Source of the DNA: Circinella umbellata | Lineage: Eukaryota; Mucoromycota; Mucoromycetes; Mucorales; Lichtheimiaceae | Direction: 5' to 3' | Length of the DNA stretch: 64,000 nucleotides | Assembly: GCA_025093555.1 (NCBI GenBank) | Contig: JAIWNF010000017.1 | Location: 1 to 64,000, forward strand | In this document: positions 16,554-24,923 of the stretch, piece after piece | Layout of the letters: every line of letters begins with the position of its first letter | How positions within the stretch are numbered: the first letter of the stretch is position 1 | The notes under the pieces: model-generated | The model's database searches: none | What the model was told of the DNA's origin: nothing | Seen by the model: only the letters and a program-made list of their open reading frames with translations | Translations under genes and position numbers: made by a program

Positions 16554-16558
16554 ATTTA

Positions 16559-18188
16559 CAGCTTTGGAAGTTAAATTTGGCCACCCAAAATGAAAATGAG
16601 CCATGATTGTGAAAATGAGCCACTTTTCAAAATTGAGCCATTCGAACGAAATTGAGCCAGCGATCCTAAAGTTGAGCCATGCCAAACAAATTTAGGCTAC
16701 TCATTTCTAAAAATGGCATGAGTTTCAACCAAGATATGTCAAACATATATAACTAATTGGGCTCCATGACCATAACTCTCTTCACTTTATGTTTTCTATG
16801 CTGTGAAAGAAATGTACGAGAAAAAAGAAAATGAAAAGTGAAAACACAATATATAAGAGATTTCGACAAATAAATGTATATGTCCAAGTTTCAAAATAAA
16901 GAAAGCAAAAACTCTTTTACTGTTACTAATACATTATACTACAAAGAAGAATAAATGATAATAATATGCATGAAGAAGAAGAATATTATTATTACTATGG
17001 TGCATTTCACTTGTAATCGCCAATAATTTCCACTGGTTTCTAGAGGCTTCAGCTTCACACTAAATCAGTATTTTCTAAATCCACACTTTAAGTATTATTT
17101 TTAAGCTTATTATAAACAGTTATTAAAGTTTGGAAAGTTGTAAAAATGTTTTAAAAAAAAGCTGAAGCTTGTCAAAGTTGGTCGGTCATGGCCCATTTCT
17201 GATCATTTTGGCTGGGCAAGAGACAAAATTGAAAGATGAAACCTACATATCGGAGCTCTCAAGCATGGGTGGAGCAAATCACGTGATATGAGTAGTAGGT
17301 GAAAATCTTAGAATGAGCTGTATCACAGTATCACAATATTGGAATCTAAGGCCATAATATAAAGATAAGAAACTATAGAAAAGAATTTTTAGTCTACTAA
17401 AAATATATATATATATATATTTGGTAAAGTTTACTGCGTTTAATATTAATGCTTAAACAAATTGATTGTACTATATTCCTCATATGTATAAGCTTCTTCT
17501 TATTACAGATGTGGTGTACTGTAGTTATTTTTGCTATTACTTCAAAAGAAATAAGAAAACAGAGAGTTCTAAATTCTAAGTGCTAATATTAATTGCAGAA
17601 TCGATTCTGCAAAGAATCAAATACTAAAGGCAATGTAATACTAGGTACATAGACAAGTTTCTTGATTTTGGTTTATACAAAACACAAGAAAAAAATTTAA
17701 AATAGGGACGGAGTCAGTTTTAAGTTTTAAGCTATGATATAAGACTATTGAGTAATGTAATGTATCTATATGCTTAAATTTATAAATACATATTAGTGTT
17801 TTATCAGAACATAATCATACCATAAGCCTACAAAAGAAGTAGTAAAACTAATCAAAATTTTTAGTATAGAACACTACTTTATGATGGCGCAAAAACAACT
17901 ATATGTAAAAGTAATAACTGTAACACAAATTACCAAATAAAGAAGCGGATTTTAAAATTGAAAAATTGAAATAAAATAAATTATTGGCGATTACAAGTGA
18001 AATGCACCATATACTTTATTTTAGCTATTATATTGAGATTTGATTAAATATGATATATATACATTACAAGATCAAAATGATCTGCTTCAGGAAGAGCCAT
18101 AAAAAAGGAGAAAAGAATTTATTTTGGATTTTGATTAGATAGAATAGAATATCGATAATAAGAAGAGCAATGATAGTTGAATTCAGTC
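16559..18188 (+). repeat. left terminal inverted repeat (interrupted by a MITE)
   Basis: Matches the reverse complement of 24297-24921 with scattered differences. The match is continuous except for the 1012-bp insertion at 16998-18009 and its duplicated TA. It ends at GAATTCAGTC, after which the two arms diverge completely. Confidence 0.85.
16998..18009. mobile_element. nested 1012-bp MITE with 32-bp inverted ends
   Basis: Begins TGGTGCATTTCACTTGTAAT and ends with its reverse complement; the inverted match runs about 32 bases. It is flanked by TA on both sides (16996-16997, 18010-18011). The right arm of the host element keeps the corresponding uninterrupted site (TTACTATGCTTTATT, reverse strand near 24480), which proves insertion after the host arms formed. 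No coding capacity is seen. The TA duplication suggests mobilisation by a Tc1/mariner-type transposase. Confidence 0.88.
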
Positions 18189-19769
18189 TCTTAGCAATTT
18201 GTATTGGGGAAACAATTTTTTTTAATAAATTGCTTTCCCACACACTGAAGTAATTTTTTTTCCTCAATGAATAAAAAGAAGGATATATTTACACCTTGTA
18301 TTGTATACTCTCGGGTCATGTCGACACTTTCTTTAACCTTGGTAAAAGTTCGCAAGATAATTATACCTTTGTTACTGGGTTGCTTCGTTTAATGCTGTAA
18401 ATTCTATGGATTTTAATGAGTCTCCGTTGTTGCTGTTTGTAAAAAGAAGTAAAAAAAAGGAGGAGAGAAGGTGTTGTGTTATTTGCAATCATTGCACCAG
18501 CTGTTCCAGAAACAGAAAGAGGTCATTACTAGTGTAAGCATCACGATAACGCTCGCTCGTCTCTTACGTATGTCATAACTTTTCTTTTTTTATAAAAAAA
18601 AACAGAAATATATAGCAAACTTCAAGCTCGAATACTTTGTGATACATCTTCCAGACTTTACTACGACAACTCTTATAATATCTGCTTCGAGCTATACTGC
18701 CATTATCATACATATAAACAATAATAATAGAAATATAAAGAAACCAAAGGTATTTTTATTTCATGAGAAAGAATTCGTGAATTTAATGTGTATAATGGTT
18801 TAAAAAAGGTAGTTTGAAAGAATTATTAATGATATCAAATGAAATCTACATTGATTTTTCTTTCATAGTTGTCGAAAGATAATAATCAATACGAAATATC
18901 GAGTGCATAGCTACTTTTGTTATCACTGGAGAAGGTATAATCACAACAATATTGAGAAAGTTATACGATTGGTATTTTGTGGTTGTCATTAACGAAAGAG
19001 AGACGCTAGCAATATGAAACAAAACTACACTCATTGATTTTTGCTTGCATTAGAGAAGGTATAATTACAATATTCGGAGGATATACTGAAGCGTTCAATG
19101 TGTGATTGAAGTACTTCGTGTAAAGATATAAAATAAAGAAGAAATAATACACTATGTTGTTGTATTTGAGTAATAAATTATATAATAAAGAATAGAAATA
19201 TGGGTTGTGGGAGTTCTTATATTCAGGAATATTACGTCTGAATCCACAAAAGAGAAATCTTATAATGAGTTTAAGAGACTTTATGCTCAAAGGAAACTAT
19301 TGTTAGGTCAATTTAATTGTTAAGAGACTGGGAGATTTTAAAGGTAAAGATAGAACTGAAGAAAAGAATTTTATTTGAAATAATTTGGGGGTATTTATAC
19401 TAATTGGCAATGCCGGTAATGTGGCATTGCTTTGCCAGAAAAGTGTCTTTGCCACAAATGTGTCTTTGCTTTGCCAGAAAAGTGGCATTGCTTAGGCCAA
19501 TAAGATCACGTAACGAGGCAGCTTGTGACACAATAATAATAATAATAATAATGTCGGTAATCAAGATGATATAAAAATGTCTTTAATTTTTATACGTTAC
19601 AATACAACACTGGTTTTTTCGGTTATTCTCGAAGATATGATATAATGTTGAAAAAAGATGTTGCTTTCGTTGTTGTTGGAGGAGGATTGTTGGTGGATGA
19701 ATTGGGTAAAATCTACATTGGGTGTTTGTTGTCGTTGTTTTTTGTTGAATGTTGGTATAAAAAAGATAT
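18189..19769. other. 3' region of the element gene, no gene seen
   Basis: AT-rich DNA between the left arm and the stop of the element's gene. It holds loosely repeated phrases (GAGAAGGTATAATCACAA-like at ~18930 and ~19050), a cluster of short repeats built on TTTGCCAGAAAAGTG at ~19430-19495, and an (AAT)n run at 19531-19552. Short minus-strand ORFs here look like chance. Confidence 0.5.
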
Positions 19770-22603
19770 TTATCGTCCATAATGGACAAAGCATAATCGT
19801 CCGTTTGATTTTGTTTTATCGATAGCATGCGTATATTGTGGTGTATCCAACGTTTCTCTGTGATTGTCCTGCCAATAGTCTTCATCCAATGATTGTTGAA
19901 TCGATCTGAATGCTTTGTAGATGGTGTAATAAGAGCTGACATCGTCGATGAAAGTCTTTACATCGCTGATGGCACGGGGGAAACCAATTTGTGCTAGTTC
20001 AATACATGTATACGTGGTTTCTGGTTGTAATGATTCCACAAAAAAAGTTACAGCTTCGCCTTCAAGAAAAAGAAAGAAGAAAAAGCAAAATTAATTTAGA
20101 ATGTAAATATTTTCGTATCGTTGTAAAAAAAAAGTATTATTAAAAAACGGATAATCCATTAGACATACCGGCAATCTGAAATGTAATAACATGATTTAAC
20201 TTGTACGCATCAATGCAGTCTTTTCCAAATACTGCTAGTCGTATCAAATCGACACCTTTTCCATGGTTATCCATATTGGCTGCCTTGGCTTCACCATATG
20301 CGACACACTTTGAATATTGAACTCCTTTAACTTCGGAAATCATGGCATCGGGTCGTTGTGTTCTCGTGGTTCGATATTTTCTGACATCGGCATTCACTTC
20401 GGGCCTATTTACTCAGTTAGTATCTGTATATCAATTACTTTGTCCTTATTGATATTCGTCAAAACAAATACTTACCAACGAAGACGACACGTGCTTGAAC
20501 TAAGAAAGGAACGAAGCACTGGATCAATAATGTTATGAATCAAATCATGCTCCTTAATATCCTGTAAAGGTTGATCAGGGAATTCTTCGACTCTAAGTTT
20601 TTATAAATGATGATGTTACTGAATAAAATCGAACTAAATAAATTGTTTCTTGTTTAATCAAGGACTACTTACATGTTCTGTAAACATCTTAACACGCAAT
20701 ACTCGAATGATCCCAATTTGTAGGTCATCATCTTGTCATGTAAATCTTCAACAATTTCATCCCGTTTAAAGCCTGCTCGTTTCAGACTCTGTCAAATAAT
20801 AACTCGAAAACGCATGTTAATGGATGTAGTAATAGTAGTAGTAGTAGTAGTAGTGACAAAGATACCTTTTTTTTACCAAAATAAAAAATAATGTTGATTA
20901 TTACGTTGAAATTTATTATTTTATTAATGACGAAATTAAATTGAACACGCGCTGATTGCAGCTTATTGCTCTCGTCTGTTCACAAAGAGAGGAACTGAAA
21001 AACCTGCAGGGATGTAGGGAAAAGGTGTATTGAAAACGACAGTACATAGTTAACAATGAGGGGGATGAGGTAGGAACCGTCTAAGATAAAAGAGAAAGTA
21101 GTGAAGAAACAATGTCACAGAAAGAAAGATGGAGAAGTGTTGATTATTACAGTCGAACCCCGTTTTTTGCACTCCCGGTTTTTGCACACCCCCACTTTCT
21201 GCATGCCTCTCAGCCTAAATCCCACTATAATTTTACTATGTTTTCGACCCCACTTTTTGCACCCCCCCCCGGTTTTTGCACTACTTTCAAGCCAAATCCC
21301 ACCTGTGCAAAAAACGGGGTTCAACTGTACCTTATTTATATTCTTCAATTCCGATCTAAACTCTTGATTATCATATTCGACATCAAACTTATCCTTAAAG
21401 TCATTGTATATTTCATTTAATACGACTTCACACATTGTTCCTAATTGTAAATCAACATGGGTTTGCTTCAATAATAAAATATGTGTCAAAGCGCTATAAA
21501 AAGATGATATAGTAATGAGATAATAGTGTAAATCATCATATTGTTAAGATGCATAGCAAAAGCATAGAACTTACAGGATTTCGTGCGTGTTGGATTCATA
21601 TGTTAATATGTTGTTCAATCCTTGTTTAACAACCGCCTCTTTGTACTTATGAAACTCCTTGGCCAATCTGCTGTTCTCATCGTTTGGCATATCTTTAGGT
21701 GCTGGACCAATATCAATTGCTTTGGTTGTTGCAAGAGCAGGGTACCCATTGTCTAAAATTATGCACTGGATAAAAATTGTTAGCAACAAAAAACTGGTTA
21801 TCTCTAAAAATTGAGTAGTTACCTCTCTTTTTTCTTCCTCCTCCTCTTCTTCGTCCATAGTTGATTCAATTTCTTCAACACTCGGATTATAATCACCATC
21901 GACTATTCTCATAACATCATTATTGCTTGTTTCTTGTTTATCTTGATTATTTTGATGCTCTTCATTATCTTGTTCTACGTCTTGCTCAATCTATAATCAA
22001 TATAGAACCATTGAAATTATTCACCACCTTAGTACTTTTGCTTCTCGTTTGTCAACCAATCTACATTTATTTCAATATGCTCCATACCTCCTTAGCAAGT
22101 TCTTCGGCACCCTTTCTCGAAAGAATAGCACCAGTTCTTTGTCCGGCAAGTATTGCTCGTTGTTTTTCTTTGTCCAAGTTGACGATTAAAAGTTTTGCAT
22201 CATATAGCTGTCGCACTTCTTCTTTTATAAGATGGACATTGTAATATGTATGCATTCGAGACGCATACTCTCCAAGAACAGAGGGGCCTTTATCTTCCTT
22301 GATTGTGTTTAAAGTTGAGATCAATAAGTTGTGGAATTCATTACCGTTCTTTAACGTAGCAGTGGTTTCAGAAAAGTAACTTTTAAGAACTTCTTGAATA
22401 TTTGACCAGTGTTTTGCAGGTACAGTTAAAAATCCATTTAGAACATTCAAGTCGACGCGTAACTTCTGAGGTAGATTATAATCACCAGGTAAACCATTTA
22501 AAGGGGGCTTTCGTGGGTACCCACGTGGATCTCGTTTTTGTTGCTTTTTTGCGATGTTATTACCATCTTTTGTAGGCCGTTTACGTTTAATTTGATCAGG
22601 CAT
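19770..22603 (-). CDS. intact element-borne protein with PD-(D/E)XK-like nuclease signature
   Basis: Eight exons (22603-22088, 21990-21823, 21765-21575, 21493-21331, 20788-20673, 20592-20476, 20404-20169, 20059-19770) with GT/AG borders and fully consistent phases give an uninterrupted 598-residue protein. The first ~40 residues are basic (KRKRP, KKQQKRDPRG), probably a nuclear signal. The middle is helical with an acidic Glu run (~residue 220). At about residues 430-455 are RPDAMI and then YGEAK, spaced as the PD and (D/E)xK strands of restriction-endonuclease-like folds, followed by a helix (GVDLIRLAVFGKDCIDAY) that usually supplies further active-site residues. The remainder (ITFQIAG, YTCIELAQIGFP) looks like a continued alpha/beta fold. 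I recall proteins with this layout as highly multiplied in Mucoromycota, without a known function. It could be the element's own nuclease or a captured passenger. Exons and intactness are solid; the fold is inference. Confidence 0.78.
21150..21327. mobile_element. 178-bp pogo/Tc1-type MITE at a splice donor
   Basis: Starts CAGTCGAACCCCGTTTTTTG and ends with the near reverse complement (AAAACGGGGTTCAACTG), bordered by TA at 21148-21149 and 21328-21329. The interior repeats GGTTTTTGCAC-like phrases. It lies in an intron of the gene at 19770-22603, and its right-hand TA is part of the donor GTA of exon 4. It codes for nothing; chance ORFs across it arise from the repeat. Confidence 0.9.
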
Positions 22604-23705
22604 TTTTAGTAAAATAGGCAAAGCTGCGGAAAAAAAGCGGGTAGGTTGGTGAAGAAGCAAGTTAACGATAAAAAAACGGCACGGATATCCAATTTAATTG
22701 TTCGCAATTAGGAAATGGCCCCAGTAGCGAAGCAAAAGGGAGATTATTCTATTGTAAAATGACGATTATATTTAATATATGGAAAGAAAATAATGATAAT
22801 AGTTAGCTATTCATTATACGTACTGTATATGTGATGTTTAAGCATTTAATTGTCGAAGTAATCAAATGGTCATGTTCGAGAACATGTATTTTGTTTCCTT
22901 GTTGTTCCCTTTACACTAAATGGTGCCACAAATAGTACATGATTTTATTTTTTTTACAGACGCCTTTAAGGAGATTATTATTGCTGCTGCTATCTGTAAA
23001 TATTTGTAGTGCTATAATAGAATTTGAATCTGTCAACACTAAATTATGTTGCAAAACTACAGTTAACACTTTTGAAGACATACTTATCACTTCAAATAAA
23101 CTCGATTCCGCAGCGATGCATTCAATGGCAGCGGTTCGACTAATGGTAGATTCCTTATTTATGGTTCGGTTTGTCGACAATAATGTTCTTGGAATCACTA
23201 ACAACAGTAGAATTTTTATCTCCACACGCAATCATGAACTCTCCATTAGAAAATGCTTTTGTTCCAATGGTTTCTCTCCCGGCATTAGGGTTTCTTCCTT
23301 CTGTTTTTTCTTCCACATCTTTTATTATTAGAGTTATATTTCATTGTGAAACTATTGATGCAGTCCAAGACAGCAATAACCTTTTTTCCATATTGACGCG
23401 AATAATGTACGTACTTCTCAACTTTTTTTTGTCTTATGCTTTATGCTATCTGTTTAAGTCTCAGCAGCATGTCATAGTCAAAATTGATTGGCTAAATCCA
23501 AAACGTCATAATCTCTTTTTATTGGTTTTCATTGCCTCATTCACTTTAGCTGTGCCAATAAAATATCCTTTCCCCCCAGCTGGAATTAAAAAAGAAATTA
23601 ACTGGCTGCTTTCCATTTTCTCTGACGGCGTCCCTAATTATTTATTTACTTTATAGCAAGCAACAAAAAACAAAATTTTTCCTTTGTGCTTTCTCCTTCT
23701 TTGTG
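22604..23705. other. upstream region of element gene; possible worn minus-strand coding
   Basis: Minus-strand reading of about 23345-22930 gives two adjoining stretches that resemble protein: one containing TIGTKAFSNGEFMIACGDKN and the next containing SRTAAIECIAAESSLFEV. They lie in different frames with a stop between them. The plus strand is also open over part of the region but reads as low-quality hydrophobic sequence. I treat this as a possible degraded gene of the element and cannot name it. The sequence just before 22603 is the presumed promoter and 5' leader of the 598-residue gene. Confidence 0.3.
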
Positions 23706-23848
23706 TTAGTTGATCTCTTTGCATCAGTCTTGATTCACCCACCTACTCTGAACTGCCTCGTCTACGGGCTATAGCTTGGAATGGTTGCGCAAGCTGCATC
23801 AAAAACAGTAATCTGAATGTAGGCCTTCAGAACTTTATCAATTAATAC
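23706..23848. repeat. 143-bp direct repeat, copy 1
   Basis: Starts TTAGTTGATCTCTTTGCAT and ends TATCAATTAATAC. It recurs 175 bases downstream with only a few substitutions and is far less AT-rich than its surroundings (CTCGTCTACGGGCTATAGC). It lies inside the TIR element, near the right arm. Confidence 0.93.
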
Positions 23849-23880
23849 GTCAAGGATAAGAAGGAGAAAGCATTAGAGTA

Positions 23881-24023
23881 TTAGTTGATCTCTTTGCATA
23901 AGTCTTGATTCACCCACCTACTCTGAACTGCCTCGTCTACGGGCTATAGCTTGGAACGGTTGCGCAAGCTGCATCAAAAAGAGTAATTTGAATGTAGGCC
24001 TTCAGAACTTTATCAATTAATAC
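23881..24023. repeat. 143-bp direct repeat, copy 2
   Basis: Second copy of the unit at 23706-23848, separated from it by 32 unrelated bases. Differences are single substitutions (for example GAATGG to GAACGG). The function is unknown; a subterminal transposase-binding array is one possibility. Confidence 0.93.
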
Positions 24024-24296
24024 TTTAACAAAACGAATGAAGTAATAACATGAGATAAGTAACACATTTTTTATATATTTTATTTAATATTATTTGTGAA
24101 AGTTTCTAATGAATTTCAATATTTTTTTTATGTTACGGTATTAACTACAATATAGAAGCCATGTCTTTTAATGCGAATTATTAAAAAGTTGGCGTTTCCT
24201 GGTAACATGAATCAATATTTTGGGTCAAACGATTTATTGGACCTTGTATAAAACATAATATATAATAGTTTACAATTATATTGGTTTATATGGGAT

Positions 24297-24921
24297 GACT
24301 GAATTCAACTATCATTGCTCTTCTTATTATCGATATTCTATTCTATCTAATCAAAATCCAAAATAAATTCTTTTCTCCTTTTTTTATGGTTCTTCCTGAA
24401 GCAGATCATTTTGATCTTGTAATATATATATATATCATATTTAATCAAATCTCAATATAATAACTAAAATAAAGCATAGTAATAATAATATTCTTCTTCT
24501 TCATGCATATTATTATCATTTACTCTTCTTTGTAGTATAATGTATTAGTAACAGTAAAAGAGTTGTTTTTGCTTTCTTTATTTTGGAATTTGGACATATA
24601 CATTTATTTGTCGAAATCTCTTATATATTGTGTTTTCACTTTTCATTTTCTTTTTTCTCGTACATTTCTTTCACAGCATAGAAAACATAAAGTGAAGAGA
24701 GTTATGGTCATGGAGCCCAATTAGTTATATATGTTTGACATATCTTGGTTGAAACTCATCATGCCATTTTTAGAAATGAGTAGCCTAAATTTGCTTGGCA
24801 TGGCTCAACTTTAGGATCGCTGGCTCAATTTCGTTCGAATGGCTCAATTTTAAAAAGTGGCTCATTTTCACAATCATGGCTCATTTTCATTTTGGGTGGC
24901 CAAATTTAACTTCCAAAGCTG
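24297..24921 (-). repeat. right terminal inverted repeat of the 8.36-kb element
   Basis: Continuous 625-bp reverse-complement match to the left arm. It lacks the nested MITE and so shows the empty site. The outer ~150 bp carry the TGGCTCA motif array (for example near 24800, 24820, 24840, 24860 and 24876). Confidence 0.88.
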
Positions 24922-24923
24922 TA

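What the first reader, a model, noticed from the sequence alone, without database searches (positions are those of the whole stretch)
16559..24921. A long-TIR, TA-duplicating element that carries one intact nuclease-like gene
Seen directly: ends starting CAGCTTTGGAAG, ~620-bp inverted arms, TA on both sides, insertion five bases after an F-box stop codon, and a single intact 598-residue gene inside. TA duplication is known for Tc1/mariner-type elements, but no DDE transposase is visible. The only intact protein has a PD-(D/E)XK-like signature. Inference: either a non-autonomous element that captured a gene, or a transposon class moved by a restriction-fold protein. The protein family is, from memory, strongly expanded in Mucoromycota, and mobile carriage would explain that.
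Basis: partly seen in the sequence, partly recalled or inferred. Interest (0 to 1): 0.78.

Follow-up and report, generated by a model that had tools for sequence, protein, structure and literature searches.

The report
Gene-carrying Tc1/mariner-type fungal transposon
In a fungus, probably a mucoralean mould, a jumping-gene element of the common Tc1/mariner kind has picked up a whole eight-exon gene for a restriction-enzyme-like protein; relatives of the element carry the usual transposase or another gene, so the passenger is very unlikely to be what moves it.

Summary
In detail: 16559-24921, TA on both outer sides, inverted arms of 616 and 625 nt (98.7% identical without gaps), and one open 8-exon, 598-aa gene. 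The left arm is split by a later 1,014-bp insertion. The genome has 104 matches to the TIR end (0 in the control). One copy has an intact 424-aa transposase but only one recognised end. Two 5.4-kb copies at different sites (98.6% identical, unrelated flanks) carry an F-box-like gene, so this family copies passengers. A second locus (C113) has the same arm plus a truncated, decayed nuclease-like gene. The window protein keeps an E...RPD...ExK signature; a paralogue's model resembles restriction nucleases. The gene shows little sign of constraint. In 28 of 28 ends examined there are inward TGRGYYA iterons, often about 19 bp apart, probably transposase-binding sites. Best reading: a non-autonomous, gene-capturing (Pack-TYPE-like) Tc1/mariner element mobilised in trans. 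Pack-Mariner in plants and Tc1/Mariner transduplication in an ascomycete are published. New here: the lineage, the cargo family, a whole multi-exon gene, and duplicated arms.

The parts
16557..16558 (.). TA target-site duplication, left
   Evidence: sequence
16559..16999 (+). left inverted arm, outer part (end CAGCTTTGGAAG)
   Evidence: inverted repeat, alignment, 104 genome matches to the end pattern
16597..16679 (+). array of five inward TGAGCCA-type iterons at arm positions 39, 58, 76, 95, 115
   Evidence: 85 inward, 3 opposite, about 2 after shuffling in 28 ends
17000..18013 (.). later insertion of a high-copy repeat with ~34-nt inverted ends, splitting the left arm
   Evidence: not in the right arm nor in the C113 arm
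18014..18188 (+). left inverted arm, inner part
19770..20059 (-). exon 8 of the nuclease-like cargo gene
   Evidence: splice model
20169..20404 (-). exon 7: RPD (D443) and GEAK (E462, K464)
20476..20592 (-). exon 6 (helix-1 glutamate E399)
20673..20788 (-). exon 5
21148..21329 (.). 182-bp inverted-repeat insertion inside intron 4
   Evidence: I8; no BLAST match to this stretch in the C113 relative
21331..21493 (-). exon 4
21575..21765 (-). exon 3
21823..21990 (-). exon 2
22088..22603 (-). exon 1, start codon at 22603
22690..23560 (.). ~870-bp high-copy repeat between gene and right arm
23703..24040 (.). 163-nt direct repeat in two copies; part of one copy also in the short relative C143
24297..24921 (-). 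right inverted arm with mirror-image end and iterons
24922..24923 (.). TA target-site duplication, right

Best explanation
It is a non-autonomous, gene-carrying member of a Tc1/mariner-superfamily (DD34E) transposon family of a probably mucoralean fungus. Shown: its ends belong to a family with 104 end matches; at 12 loci of that family a DDE_3 transposase lies just inside an end; one sister group carries another gene and sits in two unrelated places; the window's arm and gene occur together, decayed, at a second locus. Inferred: the DDE transposase made by relatives binds the iteron arrays in both arms, cuts at the CAG ends and inserts at TA. The gene was caught between two inverted copies of one end (neighbouring insertions or inverted duplication during repair), and has since been a passenger with little sign of constraint. 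The nuclease-like protein does not move the element.
For: End matches 104 against 0 in the control. 16 convergent pairs among the 100 listed ends, 390 bp to 10.9 kb. DDE_3 within 2.5 kb inside an end at 12 loci, in 9 cases 352-403 bp from it (I gave that script 21 of the 150 listed DDE_3 rows, picked by contig). C101 ORF of 424 aa: DDE_3 E 6.5e-28, D230/D329/E364, 34 residues between the second D and E. C177 and C24 are 1.77- and 1.74-kb elements with both ends and a transposase with a stop in the DDE match. Of 15 elements tested, the nuclease-like gene is in the window one only and transposase sequence in 8 of the other 14. C178a/b: 5.4 kb, 98.6% identical, different flanks, F-box-like gene inside a broken transposase gene. 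C113: arm plus gene colinear with the window. Iterons in family ends. Window branch 19 synonymous / 53 non-synonymous changes against 33/90 on the C113 branch. No transposase remnant in the window element.
Against: No full 8.4-kb second copy was found, and C113 lacks a clean end and, in the 12.8 kb read, a right arm. No copy was seen with an intact transposase and both ends. No parental gene of high identity was found (best exons 73-75% at C113, about 70% at C146 and C130), unlike what is usual for Pack-TYPE elements. Window against C113 gives dN 0.120 and dS 0.204, ratio 0.59, so some constraint on one branch or before the split is not excluded. TA on both outer sides would also be left by two separate inverted insertions. 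Movement of the window element itself was not observed.
Confidence: 0.75

Rival explanations
1. Two separately inserted, truncated copies of the same family happen to flank a resident host gene in inverted orientation; the whole never moved as a unit.
For: TA is expected on the outer side of each separate insertion. Inverted near-identical neighbours of DDE_3 transposases are common in this genome (10 inverted pairs at 9 loci against 1 direct within 25 kb). Long inverted pairs with unrelated middles exist (C79:275-287k, C68, C169).
Against: Neither arm has an inner TIR end (scan, up to 6 mismatches). The arms (98.7%) are far closer to each other than to the other arm copies found (C113 87.5-89.1%, C156 89-91%). 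Arm and gene occur together, colinear, at a second locus, C113. A cargo-bearing sister element moved as a unit (C178a/b).
Confidence: 0.17
2. A new transposon class in which the PD-(D/E)XK-type protein is the transposase.
For: It is the only open gene of size in the element; signature E399...D443...E462-x-K464; a paralogue's model is nearest to type IIG restriction enzymes.
Against: Relatives with the same ends have a DDE_3 transposase. The gene is in 1 of 15 elements tested. On the window branch it has changed much like the decayed C113 copy. 34 of 38 family loci have no listed end within 20 kb; of the other four, the window is inside a pair, C46 lies between two weak ends, C139 and C166 are 9 and 15 kb from a single end; C113 has an arm but no listed end.
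Confidence: 0.04
3. The nuclease-like protein is an accessory factor kept by the element (for example host-defence suppression or target cutting) rather than a chance passenger.
For: The ORF is open; the dN/dS of window against C113 is 0.59; a second PD-family gene lies inside another Tc1-type inverted pair at C68.
Against: Branch counts look close to neutral; the C113 copy is truncated and has two in-frame stops in my alignment; two co-occurrences are too few to show association.
Confidence: 0.06

Closest known systems
Pack-Mariner / Pack-TYPE transposons of plants (Gisby and Catoni 2022, PMC8903248, passages seen)
   Same: Non-autonomous mariner-superfamily elements with TIRs and TA duplications carrying captured coding DNA; capture proposed from neighbouring insertions.
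   Different: Here in a probably mucoralean fungus, with a complete 8-exon gene, ~620-nt duplicated arms, iteron arrays, and no close parental gene found in the genome.
Tc1/Mariner and hAT transduplication in Pyrenophora tritici-repentis (PMC3538342, passages seen)
   Same: In a fungus, an ORF between the TIRs of a Tc1/Mariner element multiplied in the genome (46 members reported there).
   Different: Different cargo and lineage; here few copies, and the transposase is absent from the window element but present in relatives.
Tc1/mariner elements with long or iterated inverted repeats (IR/DR group, Bari, Paris; foldback elements) - recalled, not tested
   Same: Long inverted ends with internal binding sites.
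   Different: Up to five sites per end, often ~19 bp apart, and arms of ~620 nt or, at C79:275-287k, ~5 kb.
Type IIG restriction endonucleases BpuSI and DrdV, nuclease domain (fold only)

Membership tests
Tc1/mariner (IS630-Tc1-mariner) superfamily | TA target-site duplication | tested here: met
   Window. Of 13 relatives, 8 have TA on both sides (C178a, C178b, C162, C203, C27, C177, C200, C167) and 5 on one side only at the coordinates used (C24, C136, C153, C156, C143)
Tc1/mariner (IS630-Tc1-mariner) superfamily | DDE/DDD transposase encoded by autonomous members with the same ends | tested here: met
   DDE_3 inside these ends at 12 loci, e.g. C101, C203, C177, C24, C178a/b; DD34E in C101. 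Not in the window element itself. No copy with both ends and an intact ORF was seen
Tc1/mariner (IS630-Tc1-mariner) superfamily | N-terminal helix-turn-helix DNA-binding domain of the transposase | tested here: inconclusive
   HTH_23 E 0.0021, below its curated cut-off
Tc1/mariner (IS630-Tc1-mariner) superfamily | The transposase cuts and moves these ends | not testable with these tools
   needs an excision or transposition assay
Pack-TYPE (gene-capturing) TIR element | Non-autonomous, TIRs and TSD of a known family around non-transposon coding DNA | tested here: met
Pack-TYPE (gene-capturing) TIR element | Recognisable parental gene elsewhere in the genome | tested here: inconclusive
   Only paralogues, best exons 73-75% (C113, itself arm-linked) and about 70% (C146, C130) protein identity, others lower; none close enough to be a recent donor
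Pack-TYPE (gene-capturing) TIR element | More than one copy with the same cargo | tested here: met
   Window and C113 share arm and gene, C113 truncated and decayed; F-box-like cargo in C178a and C178b
PD-(D/E)XK nuclease superfamily (cargo protein) | Conserved E ... PD ... (D/E)xK residues | tested here: met
   Alignment of 17 ORF pieces from 14 loci plus one Lichtheimia protein, the window protein not among them: the RPD and ExK columns are kept in most rows that cover them, with exceptions (RLD in one piece of C189, KxK in C150); window E399, D443, E462, K464
PD-(D/E)XK nuclease superfamily (cargo protein) | Restriction-endonuclease-like core fold | tested here: inconclusive
PD-(D/E)XK nuclease superfamily (cargo protein) | Metal-dependent nuclease activity | not testable with these tools
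   needs purified protein

The most novel reading that the evidence does not exclude
In this fungal lineage Tc1/mariner-type elements repeatedly acquire long, nearly identical inverted arms and thereby behave like eukaryotic composite transposons: two inverted copies of one end, each with an iteron array, mobilise whole multi-exon genes lying between them (PD-(D/E)XK gene here, a second PD-family gene in another Tc1 family at C68), next to gene capture inside ordinary two-ended copies (F-box-like gene, C178a/b; another gene, C162).
Probability: 0.2. Interest if true: 0.6.

Novelty: new member of a known kind. Interest (0 to 1): 0.42.

Why it matters
It gives a worked case in a probably mucoralean fungus of a Tc1/mariner family that carries and copies whole genes. 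It also names a testable transposase (C101), its probable binding iterons, and a nuclease-like gene family without a Pfam match. If the inverted-arm route is general, it would be a simple way for small cut-and-paste elements to pick up complete genes.

Tried and rejected
Restriction-fold transposase: rejected, because relatives with the same ends carry a DDE_3 transposase. Hidden transposase inside the window element: none by tblastn with the C101 protein at E up to 10. Composite of two complete short elements: no inner TIR ends in either arm at up to 6 mismatches. Expansion of the gene family by this transposon: of 38 loci, the window lies inside a listed pair of ends, C113 is tied by its arm, C46 lies between two weak convergent ends 13.7 kb apart that I did not read, C139 and C166 have a single end 9 and 15 kb away, and the other 33 have no listed end within 20 kb. 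One PD gene (C68) inside the nine inverted DDE_3 loci compares with about 0.06 expected by a hand estimate (38 loci, about 82 kb of 50.8 Mb), so a chance of roughly 6%; I make no claim from it. Parental source of the F-box-like cargo: none close (best other about 27% protein identity over most of its length; DNA matches elsewhere are short). Outside relatives of the cargo protein: one Lichtheimia protein, none in a second search restricted to residues 240-598 (which did not even return that protein); absence elsewhere is not shown, since that search needs shared exact words and scores a capped list. Papers: searches for Mucorales or Mucoromycota with Tc1/mariner capture and for a nuclease family in Mucorales gave nothing on point in their listings; this is not proof that nothing is in print. 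PMC13317346 and PMC10853768 were seen in passages. Absence of a family from the structure lists was not used as evidence. An F-box label for the C178 cargo rests on Pfam F-box E 8e-4, 19.6 bits against a cut-off of 20.5; an LRR part is my reading and has no significant match.

Rows left out: one search listed 100 of 104 matches and only those were paired. One search listed 150 of 164; all 150 went into, but only 21 that I picked by contig into. One search scored 73 of 101 candidates; its 74 matches were grouped into 38 loci by hand. Element C146:319558-324400 was not read, and the first 1.9 kb of C199:95761-102596 was not read.

Full report
What is there. The window element runs from 16559 to 24921 with TA outside both ends; its left end begins five bases after a TAA stop. 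Its arms are inverted repeats of 616 and 625 nt with 608 identical positions and 9 gap columns, 98.7% identical without gaps. The left arm is split by a later 1,014-bp insertion of a repeat of which 18 other listed copies cover at least 965 of 981 queried bases at 91-98% identity. Between the arms is one gene on the minus strand, 8 exons, 598 aa, with GT/AG introns placed by hand. A roughly 870-bp high-copy repeat lies upstream of the gene and a 182-bp inverted-repeat insertion lies in intron 4. No transposase remnant was found.

The family of ends. A 25-nt pattern of the end with up to 3 mismatches occurs 104 times in the 50.8-Mb genome; the reversed pattern occurs 0 times. Of the 100 listed ends, 16 convergent neighbours lie within 13 kb: five of 390-509 bp, two of 1.74 and 1.77 kb, and nine of 3.0-10.9 kb including the window. 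The ends share inward TGRGYYA iterons, often at positions near 39, 58, 77, 96 and 115: 28 of 28 ends of 200 bp have at least one and 24 have two or more; the total is 85 inward, 3 on the other strand and about 2 after shuffling. Both window ends have five, 18-20 bp apart. These ends were chosen by similarity, so shared ancestry alone could keep the register.

The enzyme of the family. DDE_3 (PF13358) has 164 matches in the genome. At 12 loci one lies within 2.5 kb inside one of these ends, in 9 cases 352-403 bp from it (21 of 150 listed rows given). The C101 copy is an open 424-aa ORF (DDE_3 E 6.5e-28) with D230, D329 and E364, 34 residues between the last two. Its three best matches are Circinella minor proteins at 84-93% identity; from this I infer, without more, that the host is a mucoralean near Circinella, though transposons can cross species. 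C177 and C24 are complete in outline (1.77 and 1.74 kb), but their DDE matches contain a stop. C203 is a copy split by a 9.1-kb insertion that has its own short inverted ends and encodes a PF04827 transposase (E 2.5e-69; PIF/Harbinger by recall). I found no copy with both ends and an intact transposase. Of 15 elements tested with both proteins, the nuclease-like gene is in the window one only, and transposase sequence is in 8 of the other 14.

Other cargo. C178a and C178b are 5,446 and 5,427 bp and 98.6% identical, with unrelated 250-bp flanks and TA on both sides. They hold an F-box-like gene in a 3.8-kb stretch inside a broken transposase gene. The F-box match is just below Pfam's cut-off. 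The gene's 408-aa exon is open in one copy and has two stops in the other. This is the clearest sign that the family copies passenger genes. No close source gene was found. C162 carries another probable multi-exon gene of unknown family (no Pfam match). It resembles, by eye only, an ORF group beside C101.

Relatives of the window element. C113:599.8-603.7k is colinear with the window from the arm through the gene to exon 1, in pieces of 74-86% DNA identity. Its end is degraded, no right arm was found in the 12.8 kb read, the gene is cut off within exon 1, and my alignment shows two in-frame stops before the natural one. C143 and C156 are short relatives with the same arm and no such gene. Against paralogue C130 as outgroup, the window branch has 19 synonymous and 53 non-synonymous changes and the C113 branch 33 and 90 over 528 aligned codons. 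The window gene has therefore changed much like the decayed copy although its frame is open. Against this stand the pairwise dN of 0.120 and dS of 0.204 (ratio 0.59) and an exon identity of 87.4%, while the six short introns are at 85-95% and the long one at 65%; changes at codon positions 1, 2 and 3 are 69, 57 and 70 of 521. So weak constraint at some time is possible. The outgroup is distant, and this is a rough test.

How it most likely works. The transposase made by relatives binds the iterons in both arms and moves the element between TA sites; the gene rides along. Both arms are copies of one end and are closer to each other than to the other arm copies found, which fits capture between two inverted copies or an inverted duplication during repair. 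A matching pattern is seen in the genome: among the 150 listed DDE_3 matches, neighbours within 25 kb with near-equal scores and lengths are inverted 10 times (9 loci) and direct once, against 20 and 18 for all neighbours. I read three of these. C79:275-287k has arms of 4,968 bp at 99.7% identity and belongs to this TIR family (its transposases have stops); C68 has arms of 1,652 bp at 97.3% and holds a PD-family gene; C169 has arms of 1,253 bp at 99.7%. C79 and C169 do not have clean matching ends, so these are leads, not proof.

Known or new. Pack-Mariner elements in rice and maize (PMC8903248, passages) and a Tc1/Mariner transduplication in Pyrenophora tritici-repentis (PMC3538342, passages) are published, so the kind is known. 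The lineage, the whole multi-exon gene, the nuclease-like family and the iteron-bearing duplicated arms are the new parts, as far as my searches show.

Noticed in passing
G000:C79:275298-287549 (L054, L055): A 12.25-kb inverted structure of the same TIR family: arms of 4,968 bp at 99.7% identity, each with a transposase 87% identical to residues 68-424 of the C101 one but with stops, and remains of another transposon in the middle; the right outer end is degraded.
   Followed up: partly
G000:C68:370579-380566 (L056, L057): A different Tc1-type family: 1,652-bp inverted arms (97.3%) with DDE_3 transposases next to TA, enclosing a gene of the same PD family (30% identity) and ORFs that look LINE-like to me.
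   Followed up: partly
genome-wide, 150 listed DDE_3 rows: Near-equal DDE_3 neighbours within 25 kb are inverted 10 times (9 loci) and direct once, while all neighbours are 20 to 18.
   Followed up: partly
window 17000-18013: High-copy ~1-kb repeat with ~34-nt inverted ends (GGTGCATTTCACTTGTAATCGCC); 18 other listed near-full-length copies at 91-98% identity.
   Followed up: no
window 22690-23560: High-copy ~870-bp repeat: 16 other listed near-full-length copies at 93-97% identity, one at 85%, one partial; class not determined.
   Followed up: no
window 21148-21329: 182-bp insertion with 25-nt inverted ends (TACAGTCGAACCCCG) inside intron 4 of the cargo gene.
   Followed up: no
G000:C203:64436-75323 (L033, L034): Transposase gene of the family split by a 9.1-kb insertion that has its own short inverted ends and encodes a PF04827 transposase and a stretch weakly matching Transposase_21.
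   Followed up: partly
G000:C46:37955-51635: A weak PD-family match (C46:45678-45881, E 9.8e-5) lies between two convergent weak matches to this family's end, 13.7 kb apart.
   Followed up: no
G000:C146:66780-75141 (L058, L059): Two copies of a PD-family gene in an inverted duplication of 2,131 bp at 99.8% identity, without a match to this family's ends at fewer than 6 mismatches.
   Followed up: partly
L032:3226-3663 and L037:834-1370: Two ORFs, inside or beside TIR elements, that look alike by eye and have no Pfam match; possibly a second nuclease-like cargo family.
   Followed up: no
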